A program made the position numbers and the translations under genes. The notes beneath the pieces are model-generated. The model saw only the letters and a program-made list of their open reading frames with translations. It was not told the DNA's origin and did no database searches. Below are positions 6,498 through 16,753 of a stretch of 64,000 bases of DNA, in pieces (positions within the stretch are counted from its first letter, which is position 1; each line of letters begins with the position of its first letter). Source of the stretch: Williamsia faeni (GTDB lineage: Bacteria > Actinomycetota > Actinomycetes > Mycobacteriales > Mycobacteriaceae); contig QJJF01000002.1 of NCBI GenBank assembly GCA_003202005.1, positions 372,001 to 436,000 of the forward strand, in the 5' to 3' direction.

Positions 6498-7778
6498 TCA
6501 AGTCGGGATTTCCTCGCGGAGGCTCCACGGCTGGTCGTAGCCGCCTGCTGAGTCGTCGGCTTTCATCAGGTCGAGAAAGGGGACCGCGTCAAACGCTTCG
6601 GGTCCCAGAACCCCGGCGCCGGACCAGGTTTCGTCGGCCAGGAGTTCCAGTGCGATCACCGGGTTCAGTGCGGTTTGCCACACCACGCATTGGCATCCGT
6701 ATTCCTTCATCGTCCATTCGTTGTCGGATACGTGGTAGAGGTACACCTGCCTGGCCTGACCGTCTTTGGTTCCGGTGACCCACATTCCGGCGCAGGTCTT
6801 CCCCGTCATCTGTGGGCCGAGGGTTGCCGGGTCGGGTAGTGCCGCGGCCACCACATCGCGGGGTGAAACCTCCACCGGGCCGTTCGCTGATCGCACCCGA
6901 ATAGGTTGCACCGCATCCAGTTTCAATAGGTGCAGGGTTTGCAGGATGCCGATGAACTCGGCGCCGAGACCGTATTTGAACGTGACCCGCTTCGCGTCGA
7001 GCCATCGGGGCATCAGCAGCACCTCTTCGTGCTCGACGTGCACGCACTCCACCGGACCGATCCCGCCGGGGAAGTCGAACACCTCGGGTTCGCTGAAAGG
7101 CGGTGTGGTGAACCAGCTTTCGGCGTGATCCTTGTCGTAGATGACAGGAGGATTCAGGCACTCCTCGATGGTTGTCCAGATGGAGAAGCTGGGTGCGAAG
7201 ATCTCGTTGCCGTCGGAATCGCGGACAACGAGGTTGGCGCCGTCACGGGTACCGAGTTCGTCGACCGTGTCGAAGAGGTGGTCGCACGCGTATCTGGCGA
7301 AGATGTCGGACAGACCGGGCTCCACGCCCATCCCGACCAGGGCGAGAAGTCCGGCCGTCTCCCACTCGCCGGCTTTCTCGAACTGGTAGTCACCCAATTT
7401 GATGCCGGTCTTTGCGTATGGCTCGTCAGGATGTGGGGCACTCAGACTCATCGCCATGTCGAGATAATGCGCTTTGGCCGCGAACGCGCCGTCGAAGATG
7501 GTCGGTACGAACTTCGGCTCGACCGCGTTCATCACGTGGGTGATCTGATGGTCGCGGGCCAGTGCCGCCACCGATGCCGCGTCACCGGCATCGATCTGCG
7601 CCGCGATGAACCGGGCTGCAACGGTACTGCCGTGTCTGTTGGCGATCCACGCGACGGTGCGTTCGGCCCGGCCGGCGTCGTAGTCGGAGACAACGATGAG
7701 CTCGTAGAAGTCGCGGCGCGCTGCGATCCTGGCGATCGCATCGCCCACGCCGCCCGCTCCGACCAACAGAATCCGCAT
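6498..7778 (-). CDS. Saccharopine dehydrogenase-like NAD(P)-binding oxidoreductase
   Basis: The start is set at ATG 7778, which has a strong upstream GGAGAGGCGAG site and begins directly with the Rossmann motif MRILLVGAGGVGDAIARIA. The frame is open further upstream, but that extension has no family character. The product is 426 residues. The N-terminal dinucleotide-binding domain and later segments such as GIGPVECVHVEHEEVLL place it with saccharopine dehydrogenase/carboxynorspermidine-dehydrogenase-like proteins. It probably acts on an amino-acid-derived imine in lysine or polyamine metabolism, but the substrate cannot be set from sequence. It is a single minus-strand gene whose 3' end meets aspS. 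Confidence 0.85.
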   Translation of the reverse strand: MRILLVGAGGVGDAIARIAARRDFYELIVVSDYDAGRAERTVAWIANRHGSTVAARFIAAQIDAGDAASVAALARDHQITHVMNAVEPKFVPTIFDGAFAAKAHYLDMAMSLSAPHPDEPYAKTGIKLGDYQFEKAGEWETAGLLALVGMGVEPGLSDIFARYACDHLFDTVDELGTRDGANLVVRDSDGNEIFAPSFSIWTTIEECLNPPVIYDKDHAESWFTTPPFSEPEVFDFPGGIGPVECVHVEHEEVLLMPRWLDAKRVTFKYGLGAEFIGILQTLHLLKLDAVQPIRVRSANGPVEVSPRDVVAAALPDPATLGPQMTGKTCAGMWVTGTKDGQARQVYLYHVSDNEWTMKEYGCQCVVWQTALNPVIALELLADETWSGAGVLGPEAFDAVPFLDLMKADDSAGGYDQPWSLREEIPT

Positions 7779-8021
7779 CGTCTCGCCTCTCCGTTCCACT
7801 GCCAGACGGGGTGCAGCGGGTCTGCCGGTCAGCCTAAGTTGTCGGCACGCAATTGATCTCGATTTCGTCGTCCGCACGACTGTCGGTCGGTGATCGGTGG
7901 ACGTCACATCACGCGCCGGCGAGGCTCTCGAAATCCTGATGCCCGGTTCGAGTCCAGGAGGACCCATGTCCGGCATAGCTCTGCGCCCTGAATCAGCCAC
8001 CGTCATCCGCGCACGCTGCCC
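7779..8021. other. Intergenic region, no supported gene
   Basis: This is the first part of a 487-base divergent gap between the saccharopine-dehydrogenase-like gene and the transglutaminase cluster. A tRNA T-arm-like string (GGTTCGAGTCC, 7945-7955) is present, but no acceptor, D or anticodon stem can be paired around it. Promoters for both flanking units should lie in this gap, but no convincing -35/-10 pair stood out. Confidence 0.5.
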
Positions 8022-8265: not shown

Positions 8266-11200
8266 TTGACAATCAAGGTGGCACTTGAGCATCGGACCAC
8301 GTACAACTTCGACAGGTTGACGAAGGTCTATCCGCACGTCCTGCGGCTCCGTCCGGCGCCCCACTCCAGGACCCCGATCGAGGCATACTCGCTGAAGGTC
8401 GAGCCCGGCGACCACTTCCTCAACTGGCAACAAGATGCTTTCAGCAACTATTTGGCGCGGTTGGTGTTTCCGGAACCGACCCGGGTTCTGAGCTTCACCG
8501 TGGGTCTGGTCGCCGATCTGACTGCGATCAACCCGTTCGATTTCTTCATCGAGGAGTGGGCGGAGCACGTCGGCTTCGAATACCCCGAGGAACTGCGTCG
8601 CGATCTCGAGGTCTATCTGCGGCCGGTGGATTCGCCGGGCGCGGACCCGTTGGTGGCCAAGTGGGTGGACGACCATCGCGCGTCGGGGAAGATGCGCGTC
8701 ATCGACTACCTCGTCCAGTTGATCTCGGCGGTTCGCGACGACATCGGGTACACGGTGCGGCTCGAAGCCGGTGTGCAGGCGCCGGAGTTCACCCTCGACA
8801 GCGGAGTCGGCTCGTGCCGTGACTCCGCGTGGTTGCTGGTGGCGATCCTGCGCCGCCTCGGTCTGGCAGCCCGCTTCGTCTCCGGCTACCTCGTCCAGCT
8901 GACGTCCGACATCAAGGCGATCGACGGGCCGTCCGGCCCCGATGCCGACTTCACCGACCTGCACGCCTGGACCGAGGTCTACCTCCCCGGCGCCGGCTGG
9001 GTGGGCATGGATCCCACCTCGGGCCTGTTCGCCGGCGAGGGTCACATCCCGCTGGCCGCGACCCCACATCCGGGCGCAGCCGCACCGATCACCGGTGCCA
9101 CCGGCAAATGCCATGCGGTGATGGACTTTTCGAACGAGGTCTCCCGATTCCACGAGGACCCGCGCGTCACGCTCCCGTACTCCGGCGACCAATGGAAGCG
9201 GATCGTCAATCTCGGAACCAACCTCGACGCCCGGATGCGCGACGGTGATGTCCGGCTCACGGTGGGCGGGGAGCCGACGTTCGTCTCGCTGGACAACCAG
9301 GTTGACCCGGAATGGCTCACCGACGCCGACGGACCGCACAAGCGTTCCCTCGCTTCAGATCTGACCGATCGGGTCAAGAAGATCTACGCGCCGAACGGGT
9401 TGGTCCAGCGCGGCCAGGGCAAGTGGTATCCAGGTGAACCGCTACCGCGGTGGCAGATCGATGTGATCTGGCGCGCCGACGGGAAAGCGTTGTGGAACAA
9501 CCCCGATCTGCTCGACGATCCCTGGCCGACCAAGGAGGCCGCTCAGGCCACCATGGATTGGCAGGCACCGGGTGGACTCGGGCCCACCGATCCGGCCACC
9601 GCCAAGGGGCCCGAGGCGTTCATCTCGGCATTGGCGGGTCGACTTCGACTCCCTGACTCGCAGGTCATGCCGGCGTACGAGGACCCGCTGCTGCGGCTCG
9701 CCGAACTGGTGCGGCTGCCGGTCGGTGCACCGCCGGACAAGGAAGCGGAGGCCGCCGAGGCGACGGATGACGATCTGACGCCCGACAAGGATTCGGCGCA
9801 GGTGCGCAAACGTCTTCTGGCCGAGCTTGATTCGTCGGTCAGCAGTCCCACCGCGTACGTGATGCCGATCAACCGCGCCCCGGACGGCGTCGGATGGCAG
9901 AGTGCGTTGTGGAAGACCCGACGTGGCCGCCTGGTCCTGAGCCCCGGAAATTCGCCGGCGGGTCTGCGACTGCCCCTGGATGCTCTGTTCTGGGAGCCGA
10001 ACATGCAGTTCTTCCTGACCGACCCCACCGCGTTCGACATCGAACCGCTCGACGATCTCACCTCTGCGGAAGGGCTTTCGTTGCCACCGTGGGCGGCGGA
10101 ATCACCTGCCGCCGCGGCGCCGGTGATGCCGCGGACGGGGATGGCCGGAGAGCCGTTGCCCGGTGCCCGCCCGGGTACGTCGTCGGGCGATACCGGTGTG
10201 CCCGGTGACGGTGAACCACTGTGGATCACCCCGGAGATGCAGAAGGCCCGGGCCGCCGCGGAAGCGAAGGCGAAAGCCGAGGCAGAAGCAGCCGCACAGG
10301 CGTCGGCCGATGACGGCGAAACCGCCGCCGACCTGGTCGAGCCGACCGGCCGATCGGTCACCGCGCTCGTGGCCGAGGAGCGCAACGGCGTCCTCTATGT
10401 CTTCCTGCCACCGACCGAGACCGGCGACGACTTCGCCGAACTGGTCAACATGGTCGAGCGCAGTGCCGCCGAGGTGGGCAAGCCCGTTGTCATCGAAGGC
10501 TATGGCCCACCCTCGGATCCGCGCCTGACGTCGATGACGATCACGCCCGACCCGGGTGTCATCGAGGTCAACATCCAGCCGACGTCGTCCTTCGTTGAAC
10601 AGTCCGAACTCCTCGAGACCCTCTACGACCAGGCGCGCCGGGTGCGGCTGGGCACCGAGTCTTTCGACCTCGACGGCAGCCACGGTGGAACCGGCGGCGG
10701 CAACCACATCACGCTCGGCGGCATCCGCCCGGCCGATTCACCGATGCTTCGCCGCCCGGACCTGCTGGTCTCGATGCTGACCTACTGGCAGCTGCATCCG
10801 TCGCTGTCGTACCTGTTCTCGGGCCGGTTCATCGGCACCACCTCGCAGGCACCGCGTGTCGACGAGGGCCGGGAGAGCTCGCTATACGAACTCGAGGTCG
10901 CCTTTGCGGAGATCGATCGCATCAGCGAAGAGACAGCCGCCGGCAACACCGATCACCACCTGCCGTGGGTGACCGACCGGGCGCTGCGGCACCTGCTGAC
11001 AGACATCACCGGCAACACCCACCGCGCGGAATTCTGCATCGACAAGATGTACAGCCCGGACTCGACGCGGGGCCGCCTCGGTCTGCTCGAGCTTCGCGGC
11101 TTCGAGATGCCGCCACATCACCAGATGGCGATGGTGCAGTCGTTGCTCGTCCGTAGCCTGGTCTCGTGGTTCTGGGACAAGCCCTACCGGGCCCGGCTGC

Positions 11201-11916
11201 AGCGCCACGGCGCCGACCTCCATGGCCGGCACCTGTTGCCGCACTACGTGATCGATGACATCAGCAACGTCGCCGAAGATCTTCGTGACGCCGGGTACGA
11301 CTTCGACACCGCCTGGCTGGCCCCGTTCACCGAATTCCGCTTCCCGCGACTGGGCACGGTGCACATCCGCGACGTGGAGATCGAGTTGCGGGGCGCGATC
11401 GAACCCTGGAACGTCCTCGGCGAGGAGTCCGCGTTCGGTGGCACCGCCCGATATGTCGACTCGTCGATCGAGCGCGTGCAGGTCCGGATGCTCGGTGGCG
11501 ACACGAACCGGTTCATCCTCACCTGCAACGGCGTACCGGTCCCGCTGGCCCCGACGGGCCGGGCGGGGGAGTCCGTCTCCGGGATCCGTTTCCGGGCCTG
11601 GCAGCCGCCGAGTGCCCTGCATCCGACGATCACCATCGACAGCCCGCTGGTCTTCGATCTCGTCGACACACACAACGGGCGTTCCGTTGGCGGTGCGACC
11701 TATCACGTGATCCATCCCGGTGGTCTTGCCTACGAGCGTCCGCCGGTGAATGCGGTGGAGGCCGAAGCTCGCCGCAACGGGCGATTTGCGGCGACCGGAC
11801 ATCAGACCGGCACCGTCGACACGGCCAAGCTCCGCGAATATCAGGCCAGGCTGGCGACCGATTCCGGCGTGCCGATGATTTTGGATCTGCGGCGAGCACG
11901 TACAGTTCTTCGGTGA
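8266..11916 (+). CDS. Transglutaminase-like / DUF2126 fusion protein (COG1305-COG4196 type)
   Basis: A 1,216-residue two-part protein like mycobacterial Rv2566. Residues 1-90 are the bacterial transglutaminase N-terminal domain. The thiol-protease-like core follows with an intact triad: Cys184 (VGSCRDSAW), His233 (LHAWTEVYL) and Asp249 (GMDPTSG). From about 300 to the end is DUF2126, including HGGTGGGNHITLGG near residue 806 and LSYLFSGRFIGTTSQAPR. DUF2126 has been proposed to be a carboxylate-amine ligase of the glutamine-synthetase/GCS class. A charged Ala/Glu/Lys-rich segment (about 657-675) interrupts it. TTG 8266 is chosen because GGAGG lies nine bases upstream. The stop overlaps the next start by 4 bases. 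It probably acts in the cytosol, substrate unknown. Confidence 0.9.
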   Translation: MTIKVALEHRTTYNFDRLTKVYPHVLRLRPAPHSRTPIEAYSLKVEPGDHFLNWQQDAFSNYLARLVFPEPTRVLSFTVGLVADLTAINPFDFFIEEWAEHVGFEYPEELRRDLEVYLRPVDSPGADPLVAKWVDDHRASGKMRVIDYLVQLISAVRDDIGYTVRLEAGVQAPEFTLDSGVGSCRDSAWLLVAILRRLGLAARFVSGYLVQLTSDIKAIDGPSGPDADFTDLHAWTEVYLPGAGWVGMDPTSGLFAGEGHIPLAATPHPGAAAPITGATGKCHAVMDFSNEVSRFHEDPRVTLPYSGDQWKRIVNLGTNLDARMRDGDVRLTVGGEPTFVSLDNQVDPEWLTDADGPHKRSLASDLTDRVKKIYAPNGLVQRGQGKWYPGEPLPRWQIDVIWRADGKALWNNPDLLDDPWPTKEAAQATMDWQAPGGLGPTDPATAKGPEAFISALAGRLRLPDSQVMPAYEDPLLRLAELVRLPVGAPPDKEAEAAEATDDDLTPDKDSAQVRKRLLAELDSSVSSPTAYVMPINRAPDGVGWQSALWKTRRGRLVLSPGNSPAGLRLPLDALFWEPNMQFFLTDPTAFDIEPLDDLTSAEGLSLPPWAAESPAAAAPVMPRTGMAGEPLPGARPGTSSGDTGVPGDGEPLWITPEMQKARAAAEAKAKAEAEAAAQASADDGETAADLVEPTGRSVTALVAEERNGVLYVFLPPTETGDDFAELVNMVERSAAEVGKPVVIEGYGPPSDPRLTSMTITPDPGVIEVNIQPTSSFVEQSELLETLYDQARRVRLGTESFDLDGSHGGTGGGNHITLGGIRPADSPMLRRPDLLVSMLTYWQLHPSLSYLFSGRFIGTTSQAPRVDEGRESSLYELEVAFAEIDRISEETAAGNTDHHLPWVTDRALRHLLTDITGNTHRAEFCIDKMYSPDSTRGRLGLLELRGFEMPPHHQMAMVQSLLVRSLVSWFWDKPYRARLQRHGADLHGRHLLPHYVIDDISNVAEDLRDAGYDFDTAWLAPFTEFRFPRLGTVHIRDVEIELRGAIEPWNVLGEESAFGGTARYVDSSIERVQVRMLGGDTNRFILTCNGVPVPLAPTGRAGESVSGIRFRAWQPPSALHPTITIDSPLVFDLVDTHNGRSVGGATYHVIHPGGLAYERPPVNAVEAEARRNGRFAATGHQTGTVDTAKLREYQARLATDSGVPMILDLRRARTVLR

Positions 11917-14618
11917 CATTGCCTACGATTGAACCCACCGGGGTTTTGGACCGATACCGGTCTGACCGGTACGGATTATTCGATCTCTCGGCGATGCCCG
12001 GATCACCGTCCGGACCCTTCGACGAGCTCTTCGACAACACCGGCGCGGTCCGCGGCCAGTGGTCCGGTCTCGTCGACGGACTCGAGCGGATGGCCGACGC
12101 CGGACTGCGGCAGGCCGATCAGCGGGTGCGGACTCTCGTCGACGACGACGGCATCACCTACAACGCCCCGACCGGCAATTCCACACAGCAGCGACGCTGG
12201 GAGCTCGACTGTGTGCCGCTGCTGTTCGACGGCTCGCAGTGGCAGCTGCTCGAGAAGGGCATCGAACAACGTGCCCGGGTGCTCGATGCGTTGCTGTCGG
12301 ATGTGTACGCCGACCAGACGGTGATCACGTCGGGGCTGGTGCCACCGGAGATGATCTACGGACATCCAGGTTATGTCCGCAAGGCCTCGCGTTTTCCGCA
12401 GGTGCGCTCCCACATGCTGTTCATGCACGCCTGCCTCATCGGCCGGGTCCCGAGCGGTGAGCACCTGGTCTACTCCGATCGCGCTCAGGCGCCGTCGGGT
12501 ATCGGTTATGCGCTGGCCGACCGTCAGCTCATGTCGCGGGCGTTCCCGCGCCTGTTGCAGCGCTGTGTTCCGCGACCGATGTCGGCGTTTGCGGCCACGG
12601 TCCGGCTTGCGACCTTCGAATACGCACCACAGGGCATCGAGGAACCCACCGTTGCCGTCCTGACCCCGGGTTCGCTGTCGGAGACCGCCTTCGACCAGGC
12701 CTACCTGGCGTCGATCCTGGGCTTTCCCCTGGTCGAGGCCGCCGACCTGGTGGTCCGCGACGGGACGGTCTACATGCGGTCGCTGGGAACCTACAAGCGA
12801 CTCGACGTGATCATCCGACGCGTCGATTCCGACTACTCCGATCCGCTCGATCTGAAGGCCGATTCCCGGCTGGGCGTCCCGGGTCTGGTGGAGGCAGTCT
12901 CGCGCGGTTCGGTCACCGTCCTCAACACACTCGGCAGCGGGGTGCTCGAGAACCCGGCGCTGCACACGGTCCTGCCCGCGGTCAGCAAACACCTCCTCGG
13001 CGAGGACCTGTTGCTGAACTCGGTGCAATCATATTGGGCCGGAAACGATCTCGAACGAACCAAGTTGCTGGCCGATCTTCCACAGCTGGCGATCACGAAC
13101 TTCCGTACCGGCGAAGAGTTCTCCGGACCGATGCTGAGCACAGGTGGGATCGACGCACTGCGCACCCGCATCGCGGCCGAGCCGTGGCAGTGGGTGGGCC
13201 GTGTCCTGGAACGGTTTTCGGTGGCACCGTCCTCCACTCCCAGCCCGTATCGATCGCGAACCGCCGGGTCGCCGTTGCGTGCCGCCCCGGTGGGCATTCG
13301 CTCGTTCAGCGTCGCGCAGGGCTCGGGATACGCGGTCCTGCCCGGCGGGCTCGGCCAGGTGCTCGCCGAAGGTGCCGCCGGTTCGGCGATGGCTTCCGTT
13401 GCCGGAAAAGATGTTTGGGTGACCACCGTGGAGCCGGCCGCCGGCCAGGTCCGGGTGGAGGAGTCGGGGGATCGGAGTGGTCCGATCATCGTCACCGGCG
13501 CCGGTTCGATCGCGATCCCGGCGAGTTCGGACCCGGTGGTCAGCTCGCCGCGCGTACTGTCCGATCTGTTCTGGTTCGGCCGGTACGGCGAGCGGGCCGA
13601 ACTGACCACCAGGATGGTCAAGGTCGCCCGCGAGCGTTACGAGGACTACCGGTACCGGCCCTGGATGACGGGCACCGCGTCGATCCCGTTGTTCCTGAGC
13701 GCAATTGCGTCCGCGTCCGGCAACGAGGCGGTGCTGCAAGGCGCCCGCGGTCTCCGCGATTTCGACAGCGGCAAAGCCCCGGAGCCCGATGAGGTCCTCG
13801 CGGCGACCGCGCGGTTGCACATGATGACCGGTGGCCGGCGGACCCCGGGTTCGGTCGCCTTTGCGGTCGACCGTCTGCAGCAACTGGCCCGCGCGGTCCG
13901 TGACCAGCTGTCAACGAGCACGTGGATGGTGCTCGGGGCCATCGAACGGGCACTGAACGAACTGGGTACCGCGCCTCTGACCGGCACGAGTGAGGACACG
14001 GAGAGCGACGGTTCCGAACTCGGCCGCGCGCACGACGACATCCTGCACGGACTCCTGGCCTTGGCCGGGCTGCAGGCCGAGTCGATGGTGCACGACCCGG
14101 GCTGGCTGTTCATGGACATCGGGCGCCGTGTCGAGCGCGCGCAGATGCTGGCGGGACTTACCTCGGCGATCTTCGTGCCGCAGTACGACGCCGACACCGA
14201 ACAGGGTCTGCTGGAGGCCTATCTGTCGGCCAGCGAGTCGGTCATCACCTACCGCCGCCGCAACCGGGGCATCGTCCGGCTCGGTTCGGTGGCCACACTG
14301 ATGTTGTTCGACGAGGGCAACCCGCGGGCGATGATCTATCAACTGCAGACGCTGCGCGACGATCTGACCGCACTGCCGGCCAATGTCCGTTCCGTGGCCG
14401 CCGAGCGCGTCGTCGAGGATCTGGTGTCCGAGCTGCGCCGTGTCGACCCGGCGGATCTGGCCTCGATCGGAGCCGGTGGGAAGCGCGTGGAGTTGGCCGA
14501 ACTGATGCGCACCCTCGACACCGGGCTCCGGGAGATCTCGGATGTGCTCGGGCGCACCAGACTTGCTCATCCGGTTGACATGCAACCACTCTGGGGTGCC
14601 GGATCGGAGGGGATGTAA
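11913..14618 (+). CDS. Circularly permuted ATP-grasp ligase fused to alpha-E domain
   Basis: A 901-residue protein like mycobacterial Rv2567. The N-terminal half (to about 500) is the circularly permuted type 2 ATP-grasp domain (COG2308), recognised from MIYGHPGYVRKASRFPQ and YSDRAQAPSGIGYALADR. From about residue 550 comes the all-helical alpha-E domain (COG2307), starting DLFWFGRYGERAELTTR and running to the C-terminus. ATP-grasp enzymes join a carboxylate to an amine or thiol through an acyl-phosphate, so peptide-bond formation is the expected chemistry; alpha-E may hold the substrate. In many genomes the two domains are separate genes, and here they are fused. The GTG start overlaps the previous stop (GTGA), and the next gene starts directly after its stop. 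Confidence 0.9.
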   Translation: MTLPTIEPTGVLDRYRSDRYGLFDLSAMPGSPSGPFDELFDNTGAVRGQWSGLVDGLERMADAGLRQADQRVRTLVDDDGITYNAPTGNSTQQRRWELDCVPLLFDGSQWQLLEKGIEQRARVLDALLSDVYADQTVITSGLVPPEMIYGHPGYVRKASRFPQVRSHMLFMHACLIGRVPSGEHLVYSDRAQAPSGIGYALADRQLMSRAFPRLLQRCVPRPMSAFAATVRLATFEYAPQGIEEPTVAVLTPGSLSETAFDQAYLASILGFPLVEAADLVVRDGTVYMRSLGTYKRLDVIIRRVDSDYSDPLDLKADSRLGVPGLVEAVSRGSVTVLNTLGSGVLENPALHTVLPAVSKHLLGEDLLLNSVQSYWAGNDLERTKLLADLPQLAITNFRTGEEFSGPMLSTGGIDALRTRIAAEPWQWVGRVLERFSVAPSSTPSPYRSRTAGSPLRAAPVGIRSFSVAQGSGYAVLPGGLGQVLAEGAAGSAMASVAGKDVWVTTVEPAAGQVRVEESGDRSGPIIVTGAGSIAIPASSDPVVSSPRVLSDLFWFGRYGERAELTTRMVKVARERYEDYRYRPWMTGTASIPLFLSAIASASGNEAVLQGARGLRDFDSGKAPEPDEVLAATARLHMMTGGRRTPGSVAFAVDRLQQLARAVRDQLSTSTWMVLGAIERALNELGTAPLTGTSEDTESDGSELGRAHDDILHGLLALAGLQAESMVHDPGWLFMDIGRRVERAQMLAGLTSAIFVPQYDADTEQGLLEAYLSASESVITYRRRNRGIVRLGSVATLMLFDEGNPRAMIYQLQTLRDDLTALPANVRSVAAERVVEDLVSELRRVDPADLASIGAGGKRVELAELMRTLDTGLREISDVLGRTRLAHPVDMQPLWGAGSEGM

Positions 14619-15548
14619 GTGAACACGCCCGACGGACAATCACGGCCCTACACCAATCTGGTGGAGGGGGCATCACGTCGATACCGGGTCACGCACCGGA
14701 CCCGCTACGACTACGACGACGTCGTCAGCAGCAGCTACGGCCGCTGCCATCTGCAGCCACGCGACCTGCCCGGTCAGCGGGTCATCGACAGCGCGATCAC
14801 CATCGATCCCGAGCCCTCGGACCGATCGACGGGCGTCGACATCTACGGCAATTACGACAACTACTTCCACGTCCGCACCCCGCATCGGCGCCTCGAGGTG
14901 ACCGGTGTCTCGACGGTGGAGGTGGATCCGCTGGATCAGGAGTTGCTCAACTCGGCGGCGGCGCGGGCTCCTTGGGAATCGGCCCGGCCTACCGGTCCGG
15001 ACGGCGCTCGTGCGGTCGAGTTCCGCCTCGACCTGTACCCACCCGAGATCAGTCCCGCGGTCGTCCGGTACGCGTCGTCGATCTTCACACCCGGGGCACC
15101 CCTGCTCGACGTCGTTCTGGCGCTCACCAGCCGCATCTTCCGTGATTTCACCTACCGTTCGGGGTCCACGGCGATCAGTACCAAGGTCGACACGGTCCTG
15201 GAGCGTCGGGAGGGCGTGTGCCAGGACTTCGCCCGGGTTGCGATCGCGTGTTTGCGGTCGCAGGGGCTCGCCGCGCGGTATGTCTCGGGATATCTGGCCA
15301 CCGACCCGCCCCCCGGACGCGAGCGGATCTTCGGTGCCGACGCGTCGCATGCGTGGGCCGCGGTGTGGCTTCCGGGGGATCGCTGGATCGCCTTCGACCC
15401 CACCAACGACAAACTGGTCGACGAACGCCATGTCACGGTCGCCTGGGGCCGCGATTACGACGATGTGCCACCGCTGCGAGGAGTTATCTATACCGAGTCC
15501 CGGAAGAGTAAAATCGACGTCGCTGTGGATGTCGCGCCTGAAAATTGA
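14619..15548 (+). CDS. Transglutaminase-like protein, stand-alone
   Basis: A 309-residue protein like mycobacterial Rv2569c. A bacterial transglutaminase N-terminal beta domain (about residues 20-105, YRVTHRTRYDYDDVV) precedes the catalytic core. The triad is intact: Cys201 (EGVCQDFARVA), His244 (DASHAWAAVW) and Asp260 (AFDPTND). The DPTND plus WGRDYDDVPPLRGV ending is typical of the COG1305 subgroup found beside alpha-E/ATP-grasp genes. These enzymes may act as peptidases or as amide-forming or amide-exchanging enzymes, and sequence does not decide which. There is no signal peptide. GTG 14619 abuts the previous TAA with no spacer, so translational coupling is likely. It is the last gene of the three-gene unit. 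Confidence 0.92.
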   Translation: MNTPDGQSRPYTNLVEGASRRYRVTHRTRYDYDDVVSSSYGRCHLQPRDLPGQRVIDSAITIDPEPSDRSTGVDIYGNYDNYFHVRTPHRRLEVTGVSTVEVDPLDQELLNSAAARAPWESARPTGPDGARAVEFRLDLYPPEISPAVVRYASSIFTPGAPLLDVVLALTSRIFRDFTYRSGSTAISTKVDTVLERREGVCQDFARVAIACLRSQGLAARYVSGYLATDPPPGRERIFGADASHAWAAVWLPGDRWIAFDPTNDKLVDERHVTVAWGRDYDDVPPLRGVIYTESRKSKIDVAVDVAPEN

Positions 15549-15604: not shown

Positions 15605-16753
15605 ATGACTGTTCTTGCCGATAGCCAGAAAACCGGCGCGGTGCAGGCAGCTGAGCGGCTTCTGGCCGCTCGTGCCGGCTCCCCCGTGTCCTTAGCCGAA
15701 CCCCTTGATCTGGGTGGCAGCGGTCGTACCCAGGTTCTGCGGGTTCGAGTCGCGAAGAATCCATTTTCGGCTGATCGCACCCTGGTGATCAAGGTCCTCG
15801 GCGACGGGGACACCGCCTCGGGTGCATCTTTCTACCGCGAGGTCGCCTCGTACAAATACGCCAACGCACTCCCGACGGAATCGCGACCGGGCCCGGCCCT
15901 GATCGCCTTCGATCTGGCATCCCGGGTCCTGGTCCTCAGCGACCTCGGTGACGGCCGTTCGATGACGGAATTGCTGAGCTCCAACGACACCGCTGCGGTC
16001 GGCAACTCCGTCAGCGCCTGGGGACAGGCACTGGGGCGGATGCACTCGGCCACGGTCGGTGGCGAGAACGATTTCGCGGCGCTGTTGCGCCAGGGCGCCG
16101 AGGGTATCGCCGTCGACGCGCTGCGGAGCCAGTTCGAGGCCGCGGTGGACTCGGCGCCCAAGGTGGTCACAGAGATGCTGGGACTGACGTTCGACCAGGG
16201 TGTCCAGGATGCGCTCGACGCCGCGCGTGACCTGTTCGGCGAAGGTGACCACCGGGCGTTCAGCCCGTCGGACGTGGGCCCCGAGAACATCCTGATCAAC
16301 GACGACGGCGTGCGGTTCCTCGACTACGAGTGGGGTGGTTTCCGCGACGCCACCCTCGACATCGCGTACGCACTGGTGACGTTTGCGCCGTGGTTGTCGC
16401 CGGGTTCGGCGGCCGCCCGGGTGGATCTCGAGACCCGGATGCTCGATGCCTGGCGCTCCGAGGTGCAGGCGATCTGGCCGAGCCTGGGTTCGGACCGTGA
16501 ACTGGCCCGCAAGGCTGTGGTGGCACGACTGGCGTGGGTATGGCTGTCGACGATGTGGATGTTGCCGGTCGACGACACCGATGTCGGCCGGGACGACGAA
16601 GCCCATGGCCTGGCCCTGAGCACCTCGGATCCCCGCGTGATCGTGGATCGGTGGACAGCGCTGGCCGACGCCGCCCGCCGGGCCGGCGACCCCGCGCTCG
16701 CCGGGTTCGCCGATTCGGTCGGTCACGCGCTGGATTCGTCCTGGCTGCACTGA
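15605..16753 (+). CDS. Phosphotransferase of the APH/choline-kinase-like fold
   Basis: A 382-residue protein with the kinase-like fold of aminoglycoside/small-molecule phosphotransferases. An N-lobe Lys is seen in LVIKVLGDGD. The catalytic loop reads FSPSDVGPENILI, with the Asp and Asn of the Brenner motif HxDxxxxN present but the leading His replaced by Ser. The metal-binding DYEWGGFRD follows. The substrate is unknown; a link to the neighbouring ligase cluster, 56 bases upstream, is only by position. That 56-base gap contains a short CCTAC/GTAGG stem. rarA starts 9 bases after its stop, so the two are likely cotranscribed. Confidence 0.75.
   Translation: MTVLADSQKTGAVQAAERLLAARAGSPVSLAEPLDLGGSGRTQVLRVRVAKNPFSADRTLVIKVLGDGDTASGASFYREVASYKYANALPTESRPGPALIAFDLASRVLVLSDLGDGRSMTELLSSNDTAAVGNSVSAWGQALGRMHSATVGGENDFAALLRQGAEGIAVDALRSQFEAAVDSAPKVVTEMLGLTFDQGVQDALDAARDLFGEGDHRAFSPSDVGPENILINDDGVRFLDYEWGGFRDATLDIAYALVTFAPWLSPGSAAARVDLETRMLDAWRSEVQAIWPSLGSDRELARKAVVARLAWVWLSTMWMLPVDDTDVGRDDEAHGLALSTSDPRVIVDRWTALADAARRAGDPALAGFADSVGHALDSSWLH

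What the first reader, a model, noticed from the sequence alone, without database searches (positions are those of the whole stretch)
8266..15548. Three-gene transglutaminase / DUF2126 / ATP-grasp / alpha-E / transglutaminase system
Three genes with 4-base and 0-base junctions encode five domains: two cysteine transglutaminase-like cores with intact Cys-His-Asp triads, a DUF2126 putative carboxylate-amine ligase, a circularly permuted ATP-grasp ligase and an alpha-E domain. Comparative genomics by the Aravind group proposed such sets to make or attach peptides through paired ligases and to trim or exchange them with the transglutaminases. The substrate and product remain unknown as far as I know. 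The set sits amid housekeeping genes and is kept in M. tuberculosis (Rv2566, Rv2567, Rv2569c), which suggests a basic cellular role. Inference: a ribosome-independent short peptide or protein tag is built by two ligases and processed by two transglutaminases.
Basis: partly seen in the sequence, partly recalled or inferred. Interest (0 to 1): 0.8.

Follow-up and report, generated by a model that had tools for sequence, protein, structure and literature searches.

The report
Amide-bond gene set with dead ligase
Three neighbouring bacterial genes long suspected of building an unknown peptide do carry the proposed parts, but one of the two supposed ligases appears to have lost its ATP site, and the likely working copy sits elsewhere in the genome, so the system should be tested as a pair of loci.

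The parts
8266..11916 (+). Gene 1: transglutaminase-like domain fused to DUF2126, 1216 aa
   Evidence: TG directly before DUF2126 in 80 of 80 named loci, in one ORF in 80 of 80 closed DUF2126 ORFs from 81 loci
8815..9012 (+). Gene 1 TG triad C184 / H233 / D249
   Evidence: kept in 79 of 79 cross-phylum rows with letters there
9106..11892 (+). DUF2126 domain, glutamine-synthetase fold, accessory predicted amidoligase
11913..14618 (+). Gene 2: CP ATP-grasp (pseudo-ligase) fused to Alpha-E, 901 aa
12216..13361 (+). ATP-grasp domain with degenerate ATP/Mg site
12435..13097 (+). Span of the five lost site residues: L175, S188, R190 (where the intact paralogue has Asp, Glu, Asn) and P348, T395 (where it has two Lys); glycine loop after T395 absent
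13548..14555 (+). Alpha-E helical domain of gene 2
   Evidence: Pfam aa 546-881
14619..15548 (+). Gene 3: stand-alone transglutaminase-like protein, triad C201 / H244 / D260 (15219-15398); no hydrophobic N-terminal stretch seen by eye

Best explanation
The three genes are the outer layers of a two-locus amide-bond system. Shown by sequence: the genome holds a second operon (G000:C3 about 290,290-293,910) with an ATP-grasp whose five inferred Mg/ATP residues are all present, a stand-alone Alpha-E and a third TG; gene 2 is a conserved paralogue of that ATP-grasp that lost those residues and is fused to its own Alpha-E; gene 1 (TG-DUF2126) is an accessory GS-fold protein found, in the samples searched, only in genomes that have a stand-alone Alpha-E (my marker for that operon). 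Inferred mechanism: the C3 ATP-grasp activates a carboxylate and joins it to an amine or amino acid; the gene-2 pseudo-ligase/Alpha-E binds the same substrate or product without using ATP, as a scaffold or regulator that passes it on; the gene-3 TG trims or exchanges the amide; DUF2126, where present, adds a further amide bond, with its own TG trimming it. Substrate and product are not identified.
For: Five-residue count: 40 of 40 C3-type ATP-grasps keep all five; 59 cross-phylum gene-2-type keep 1 (27) or 2 (32); 35 family gene-2-type keep 0 (4), 1 (25) or 2 (6); window 0. The same residues are intact in this genome's third CP ATP-grasp, fused to GCS2. Gene-2-type is one clade (support 100, site columns removed, 57 of 135 rows sampled). 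Fold co-linear with GspS and eukaryotic glutathione synthetase; positions 318/330/332/498/533 of E. coli gss are D/E/N/K/K (the numbers were recalled); a LmTryS modelling paper assigns two Lys to ATP phosphates and Asp, Glu, Asn to Mg (PMC3581523 passages). dN/dS 0.09-0.21 for the gene-2 ATP-grasp half within the genus. Nesting 36 within 64 within 74 of 121; Pseudomonadota sample: 63 of 63 DUF2126 genomes have Alpha-E, 0 of 88 Alpha-E-free genomes have DUF2126. All parts but one TG lie in one locus in G031; a stand-alone ATP-grasp plus Alpha-E ORF lies within the fetched stretch in 38 of the 80 loci with a closed DUF2126 ORF (81 scanned, L125 included). DUF2126 GS fold.
Against: No biochemistry. 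The five-residue mapping rests on motifs, co-linear folds and recalled numbering; direct profile alignment to GspS-type proteins was not significant, and no residue-level superposition was made. 37 of 59 cross-phylum gene-2-type proteins keep the second Lys and 53 of 59 the Asp, so some may bind nucleotide. The nested pattern is not corrected for relatedness or genome size. In 4 of 50 named DUF2126 genomes and 6 of 63 Pseudomonadota ones (several of these on broken contigs) only one Alpha-E was found, so outside this family gene 1 does not strictly need gene 2. The stand-alone/fused sorting is mine, by score and open-frame length.
Confidence: 0.58

Rival explanations
1. One reading: both DUF2126 and the gene-2 ATP-grasp are working ligases that build a short peptide which the two TGs trim.
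For: Pfam matches far above cut-off; ATP-grasp fold; purifying selection; second Lys kept in 37 of 59 cross-phylum relatives.
Against: 0 of 5 inferred Mg/ATP residues in the window's protein; loop positions gapped in 33-34 of 35 family rows; an intact paralogue exists in the same genome.
Confidence: 0.12
2. It is the predicted Anbu peptide-tagging system: ATP-grasp, Alpha-E, TG and an NTN-hydrolase peptidase that tag proteins and remove the tag.
For: Same domain set as the Anbu operon (PMC6376114, PMC5666114 passages); ORFs beside the 80 named loci include an 11-locus cluster, of which 1 of 2 tested members matched Proteasome, and a 10-locus cluster with Peptidase_Mx in 3 of 3 tested.
Against: This genome has only two proteasome-family hits, an adjacent pair, so no Anbu was found; no peptidase was seen at either locus.
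Confidence: 0.15
3. Gene 2 and gene 3 are relics drifting after the pathway moved to the C3 operon.
For: ATP site lost; gene 1 lost or gained repeatedly; the gene-2 ATP-grasp half is the least conserved part by identity.
Against: dN/dS 0.09-0.21; a new residue fixed in place of an old one (Arg for Asn in 51 of 59); one clade kept across phyla.
Confidence: 0.07
4. Gene 3 acts on the cell surface as a protease unconnected with the ligases, as reported for Rv2569c.
For: PMC11081392 passages and one section report a cell-wall protease.
Against: Gene 3 follows gene 2 on the same strand in 62 of 64 family loci (L103 and L242 have it on the other strand); Cys triad conserved in 64 of 64; no signal-like N terminus by eye; the paper's inhibitor data point to Ser, not Cys. 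Orthology of gene 3 and Rv2569c was not tested here.
Confidence: 0.04

Closest known systems
CP ATP-grasp / Alpha-E / transglutaminase (Anbu) operons predicted by Iyer et al. 2009 (paper not held; known here through PMC6376114 and PMC5666114 passages and recall of its abstract)
   Same: Same ATP-grasp, Alpha-E and TG parts; a GS-like ligase partner (recalled from the abstract).
   Different: No Anbu found in this genome; two loci instead of one; one of the two ATP-grasps is degenerate, a point I did not find in print.
Rv2566-type TG + carboxylate-amine ligase family (PMC2588565, one passage)
   Same: Gene 1 has the same fused architecture.
   Different: That passage gives no gene-2 partner or dependence; here DUF2126 appears as accessory to Alpha-E/ATP-grasp loci.
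Glutathionylspermidine synthetase / YgiC / eukaryotic glutathione synthetase
   Different: Gene 2 lacks the Mg and ATP residues inferred from those enzymes.
PDB 3n6x (Mfla_0391, Methylobacillus flagellatus)
   Different: 3n6x has the intact-type motifs (alignment); gene 2 does not.
Glutamine synthetase / GmaS
   Different: 7-13% identity; no credible sequence match in the PDB.

Membership tests
ATP-grasp ligase (gene 2) | Family profile and fold | tested here: met
ATP-grasp ligase (gene 2) | Mg ligands (Asp, Glu, Asn of GspS/TryS), by inferred position | tested here: not met
   L175, S188, R190 in the window
ATP-grasp ligase (gene 2) | Two ATP-phosphate lysines and glycine loop, by inferred position | tested here: not met
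   P348, T395, loop absent
ATP-grasp ligase (gene 2) | ATP-dependent amide formation | not testable with these tools
   needs enzyme assay
GS-like amidoligase (DUF2126) | Glutamine-synthetase fold | tested here: met
GS-like amidoligase (DUF2126) | Intact metal/ATP residues | tested here: inconclusive
   Many invariant Glu/His/Arg/Asn in 72 sequences; two stretches fall on YbdK stretches that I recall as GCS2 motifs, at insignificant E 0.4-0.57; no residue-level mapping
Transglutaminase-like cysteine enzymes (genes 1 and 3) | Cys-His-Asp triad | tested here: met
Anbu peptide system | ATP-grasp, Alpha-E and TG genes together | tested here: met
Anbu peptide system | Anbu peptidase present | tested here: not met
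   only two adjacent proteasome-family hits in the genome
Three-gene unit as proposed | Genes inherited together | tested here: not met
   gene 1 not found in 28 of 64 family genomes with gene 2
Three-gene unit as proposed | Core housekeeping distribution | tested here: not met
   36 of 121 family, 5 of 100 phylum

The most novel reading that the evidence does not exclude
Gene 2 is an ancient pseudo-ATP-grasp that turns one ATP-driven amide bond into further ones without ATP: it holds the product of the intact C3 ligase while the neighbouring TG transfers its acyl group to a second amine, so that a chain or tag is extended by transamidation, and DUF2126 is an optional later ligation layer. A dead ligase as a standing partner of ribosome-independent peptide assembly, kept across several bacterial phyla, would be a new principle.
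Probability: 0.15. Interest if true: 0.8.

Novelty: new variant of a known kind. Interest (0 to 1): 0.55.

Why it matters
A system predicted in 2008-2009, for which my searches found no product, may have been framed around the wrong enzyme in this locus: assays of the gene-2 ATP-grasp would be expected to fail, while the C3 protein should show the ATP chemistry. The nested inheritance suggests an order (C3 operon first, genes 2 and 3 next, gene 1 last) that can be tested by single deletions and metabolite comparison, and same-genus strains with and without gene 1 offer a natural comparison.

Tried and rejected

Recalled or judged by eye, not from a call: GspS residue numbers (letters at those positions checked), the Iyer 2009 abstract, Rv2567 as gene 2's relative, and the names aspS, rarA, alaS, prcBA, pafA and dop.

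Full report
Observation. The three ORFs, their junctions and domains are as described. Gene 1 is TG + DUF2126, gene 2 CP ATP-grasp + Alpha-E, gene 3 a TG. Triads are intact. The flanking genes I call aspS, rarA and alaS by eye.

Distribution. DUF2126 is not a core gene: 5 of 100 phylum genomes and 36 of 121 family genomes. Alpha-E is in 16 of 100 phylum genomes; the 5 DUF2126 genomes are the 5 with two Alpha-E hits. In the family, Alpha-E matches fall into two sorts: stand-alone, high-scoring, in 74 of 121, and fused behind the ATP-grasp (gene 2) in 64 of 121 (sorted by me from score and open-frame length). All 36 DUF2126 genomes lie in the 64, and all 64 in the 74 (Fisher p 1.7e-13 and 4.6e-24, not corrected for relatedness). 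I fetched a stretch around gene 2 in all 28 genomes with gene 2 but no DUF2126: in 28 of 28 ATP-grasp, Alpha-E and gene 3 are adjacent and no TGa-DUF2126 is found; in 26 of 28 aspS and rarA/alaS still flank them (L087 shows none of the flanking genes, L095 lacks aspS). In the 36 DUF2126 genomes (window, 6 loci, 29) the order TGa-DUF2126-ATP-grasp-Alpha-E-gene 3 holds, with TGa missing in the 7-kb contig L248 and gene 3 on the other strand in L103 and L242; 10 of the 29 and L099 and L102 show no aspS/rarA/alaS in the stretch, so the set also sits elsewhere. On a tree of the gene 2 + gene 3 proteins of the 64 genomes, DUF2126 presence needs 10 changes, 9 forced by well-supported branches; the forks nearest the root are weak.

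Second locus. This genome has three CP ATP-grasp proteins: gene 2; one in a C3 operon with a stand-alone Alpha-E and a TG, between LepA-like and competence-protein genes; and one fused to GCS2. TG lies directly before DUF2126 in 80 of 80. A second script scanned those 80 and L125: 80 loci gave a closed DUF2126 ORF, all 80 with the TG in the same ORF; 59 of these loci hold a fused gene-2-type ORF and 38 a stand-alone ATP-grasp plus Alpha-E within the stretch (many contigs are short). Whole-genome counts for 50 of the 80 named genomes (isolates first, then MAGs of other groups): 50 of 50 have Alpha-E, 46 have two or more hits; the four with one (L164, L205, L166, L187) keep the stand-alone sort by open-frame length 324-345 aa. 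In 200 Pseudomonadota genomes DUF2126 is in 63 and Alpha-E in 112; 63 of 63 DUF2126 genomes have Alpha-E, 57 of them two or more and 6 one, and 6 genomes have two Alpha-E without DUF2126. So DUF2126 goes first of all with the stand-alone Alpha-E layer.

Gene 2 lacks the ATP site. I aligned 40 C3-type proteins (37 from named loci, L125, the window genome's own, and one of its genus), 59 gene-2-type proteins (58 from named loci and L125) and 35 from family genomes including the window. At the positions matching GspS D318, E330, N332, K498, K533, all 40 C3-type keep all five; the 59 keep one (27) or two (32); the 35 keep none (4), one (25) or two (6), with two or three rows gapped at these columns and so counted as not keeping them. 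The window has L, S, R, P, T and no GGYG loop. The GCS2-fused paralogue has D, E, N, K, K and GGSG. The position mapping rests on: the letters found at those numbers in E. coli gss (numbers recalled); the TryS modelling paper's passages on Lys513, Lys548, Asp330, Glu344, Asn346 (PMC3581523); equal order and similar spacing; and co-linear folds, gene-2 model residues 36-505 on GspS 209-618 (model pLDDT 86.9). Profile alignments of sub-stretches gave the Mg-motif and second-Lys pairings but no significance, and did not pair the first Lys. Gene-2-type forms one clade with the site columns removed (57 of 135 rows, with one very long branch, L101). It is under purifying selection in the genus (dN/dS 0.09-0.21). 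The ATP-grasp of a Yersinia Anbu operon releases phosphate from ATP, by amide formation or hydrolysis (PMC6376114 section 8); I did not test which type it is.

Accessory genes. Among ORFs beside the 80 named loci, two recurrent close neighbours were tested: a 251-aa cluster in 11 loci (one of two tested members matches Proteasome) and a Peptidase_Mx cluster in 10 loci (three of three tested). The window genome has two Peptidase_Mx genes elsewhere and no Anbu was found.

Literature seen. Passages: PMC2588565, PMC6376114 (and section 8), PMC5666114, PMC3597751, PMC12239564, PMC12096838, PMC11081392 (and section 6), PMC4241560, PMC3581523, PMC8407117, PMC11597610, PMC12419801, PMC13207237. The rest were search listings. 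Iyer 2009 was not held, so it may already say part of this. Searches for an inactive ATP-grasp of this kind found nothing (0 papers; 48 papers with at least two of its terms, 15 listed, none read as reporting it; 4 papers, none holding DUF2126). PMC3597751 groups these domains with urea-metabolism domains in marine metagenomes, a lead towards nitrogen metabolism that I did not follow.

Verdict. A real, widespread, previously predicted kind of system; the window holds its outer layers, and its ATP-grasp is probably a pseudo-ligase whose working partner is on another contig.

Noticed in passing
window 15605-16753 (+): Kinase-like gene with no Pfam match and a weak thiamine-kinase hit, next to gene 3; found in 106 of 121 family genomes regardless of gene 2, but missing from all 6 sampled genomes of genus g2.
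   Followed up: yes
window 6498-8006 (-): Saccharopine-dehydrogenase-like gene (171 bits to carboxynorspermidine synthase, far under its cut-off of 800) between aspS and gene 1; no match in the other 63 family loci.
   Followed up: partly
L254 115-2730 (G000:C6 about 219,430-222,050): GCS2 domain fused to a CP ATP-grasp with the five residues intact in the same genome: a two-ligase protein whose product I did not look into.
   Followed up: partly
L143, L164, L148, L161, L167 and others: A 251-aa ORF cluster (one of two tested is proteasome-type) in 11 and a Peptidase_Mx + zinc-ribbon cluster in 10 of 80 DUF2126 loci; the latter family is also in the window genome twice (G000:C3:205663, C6:75092).
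   Followed up: partly
   Followed up: partly
L103, L242: In two family genomes gene 3 lies on the opposite strand to gene 2, so co-transcription is not essential.
   Followed up: no
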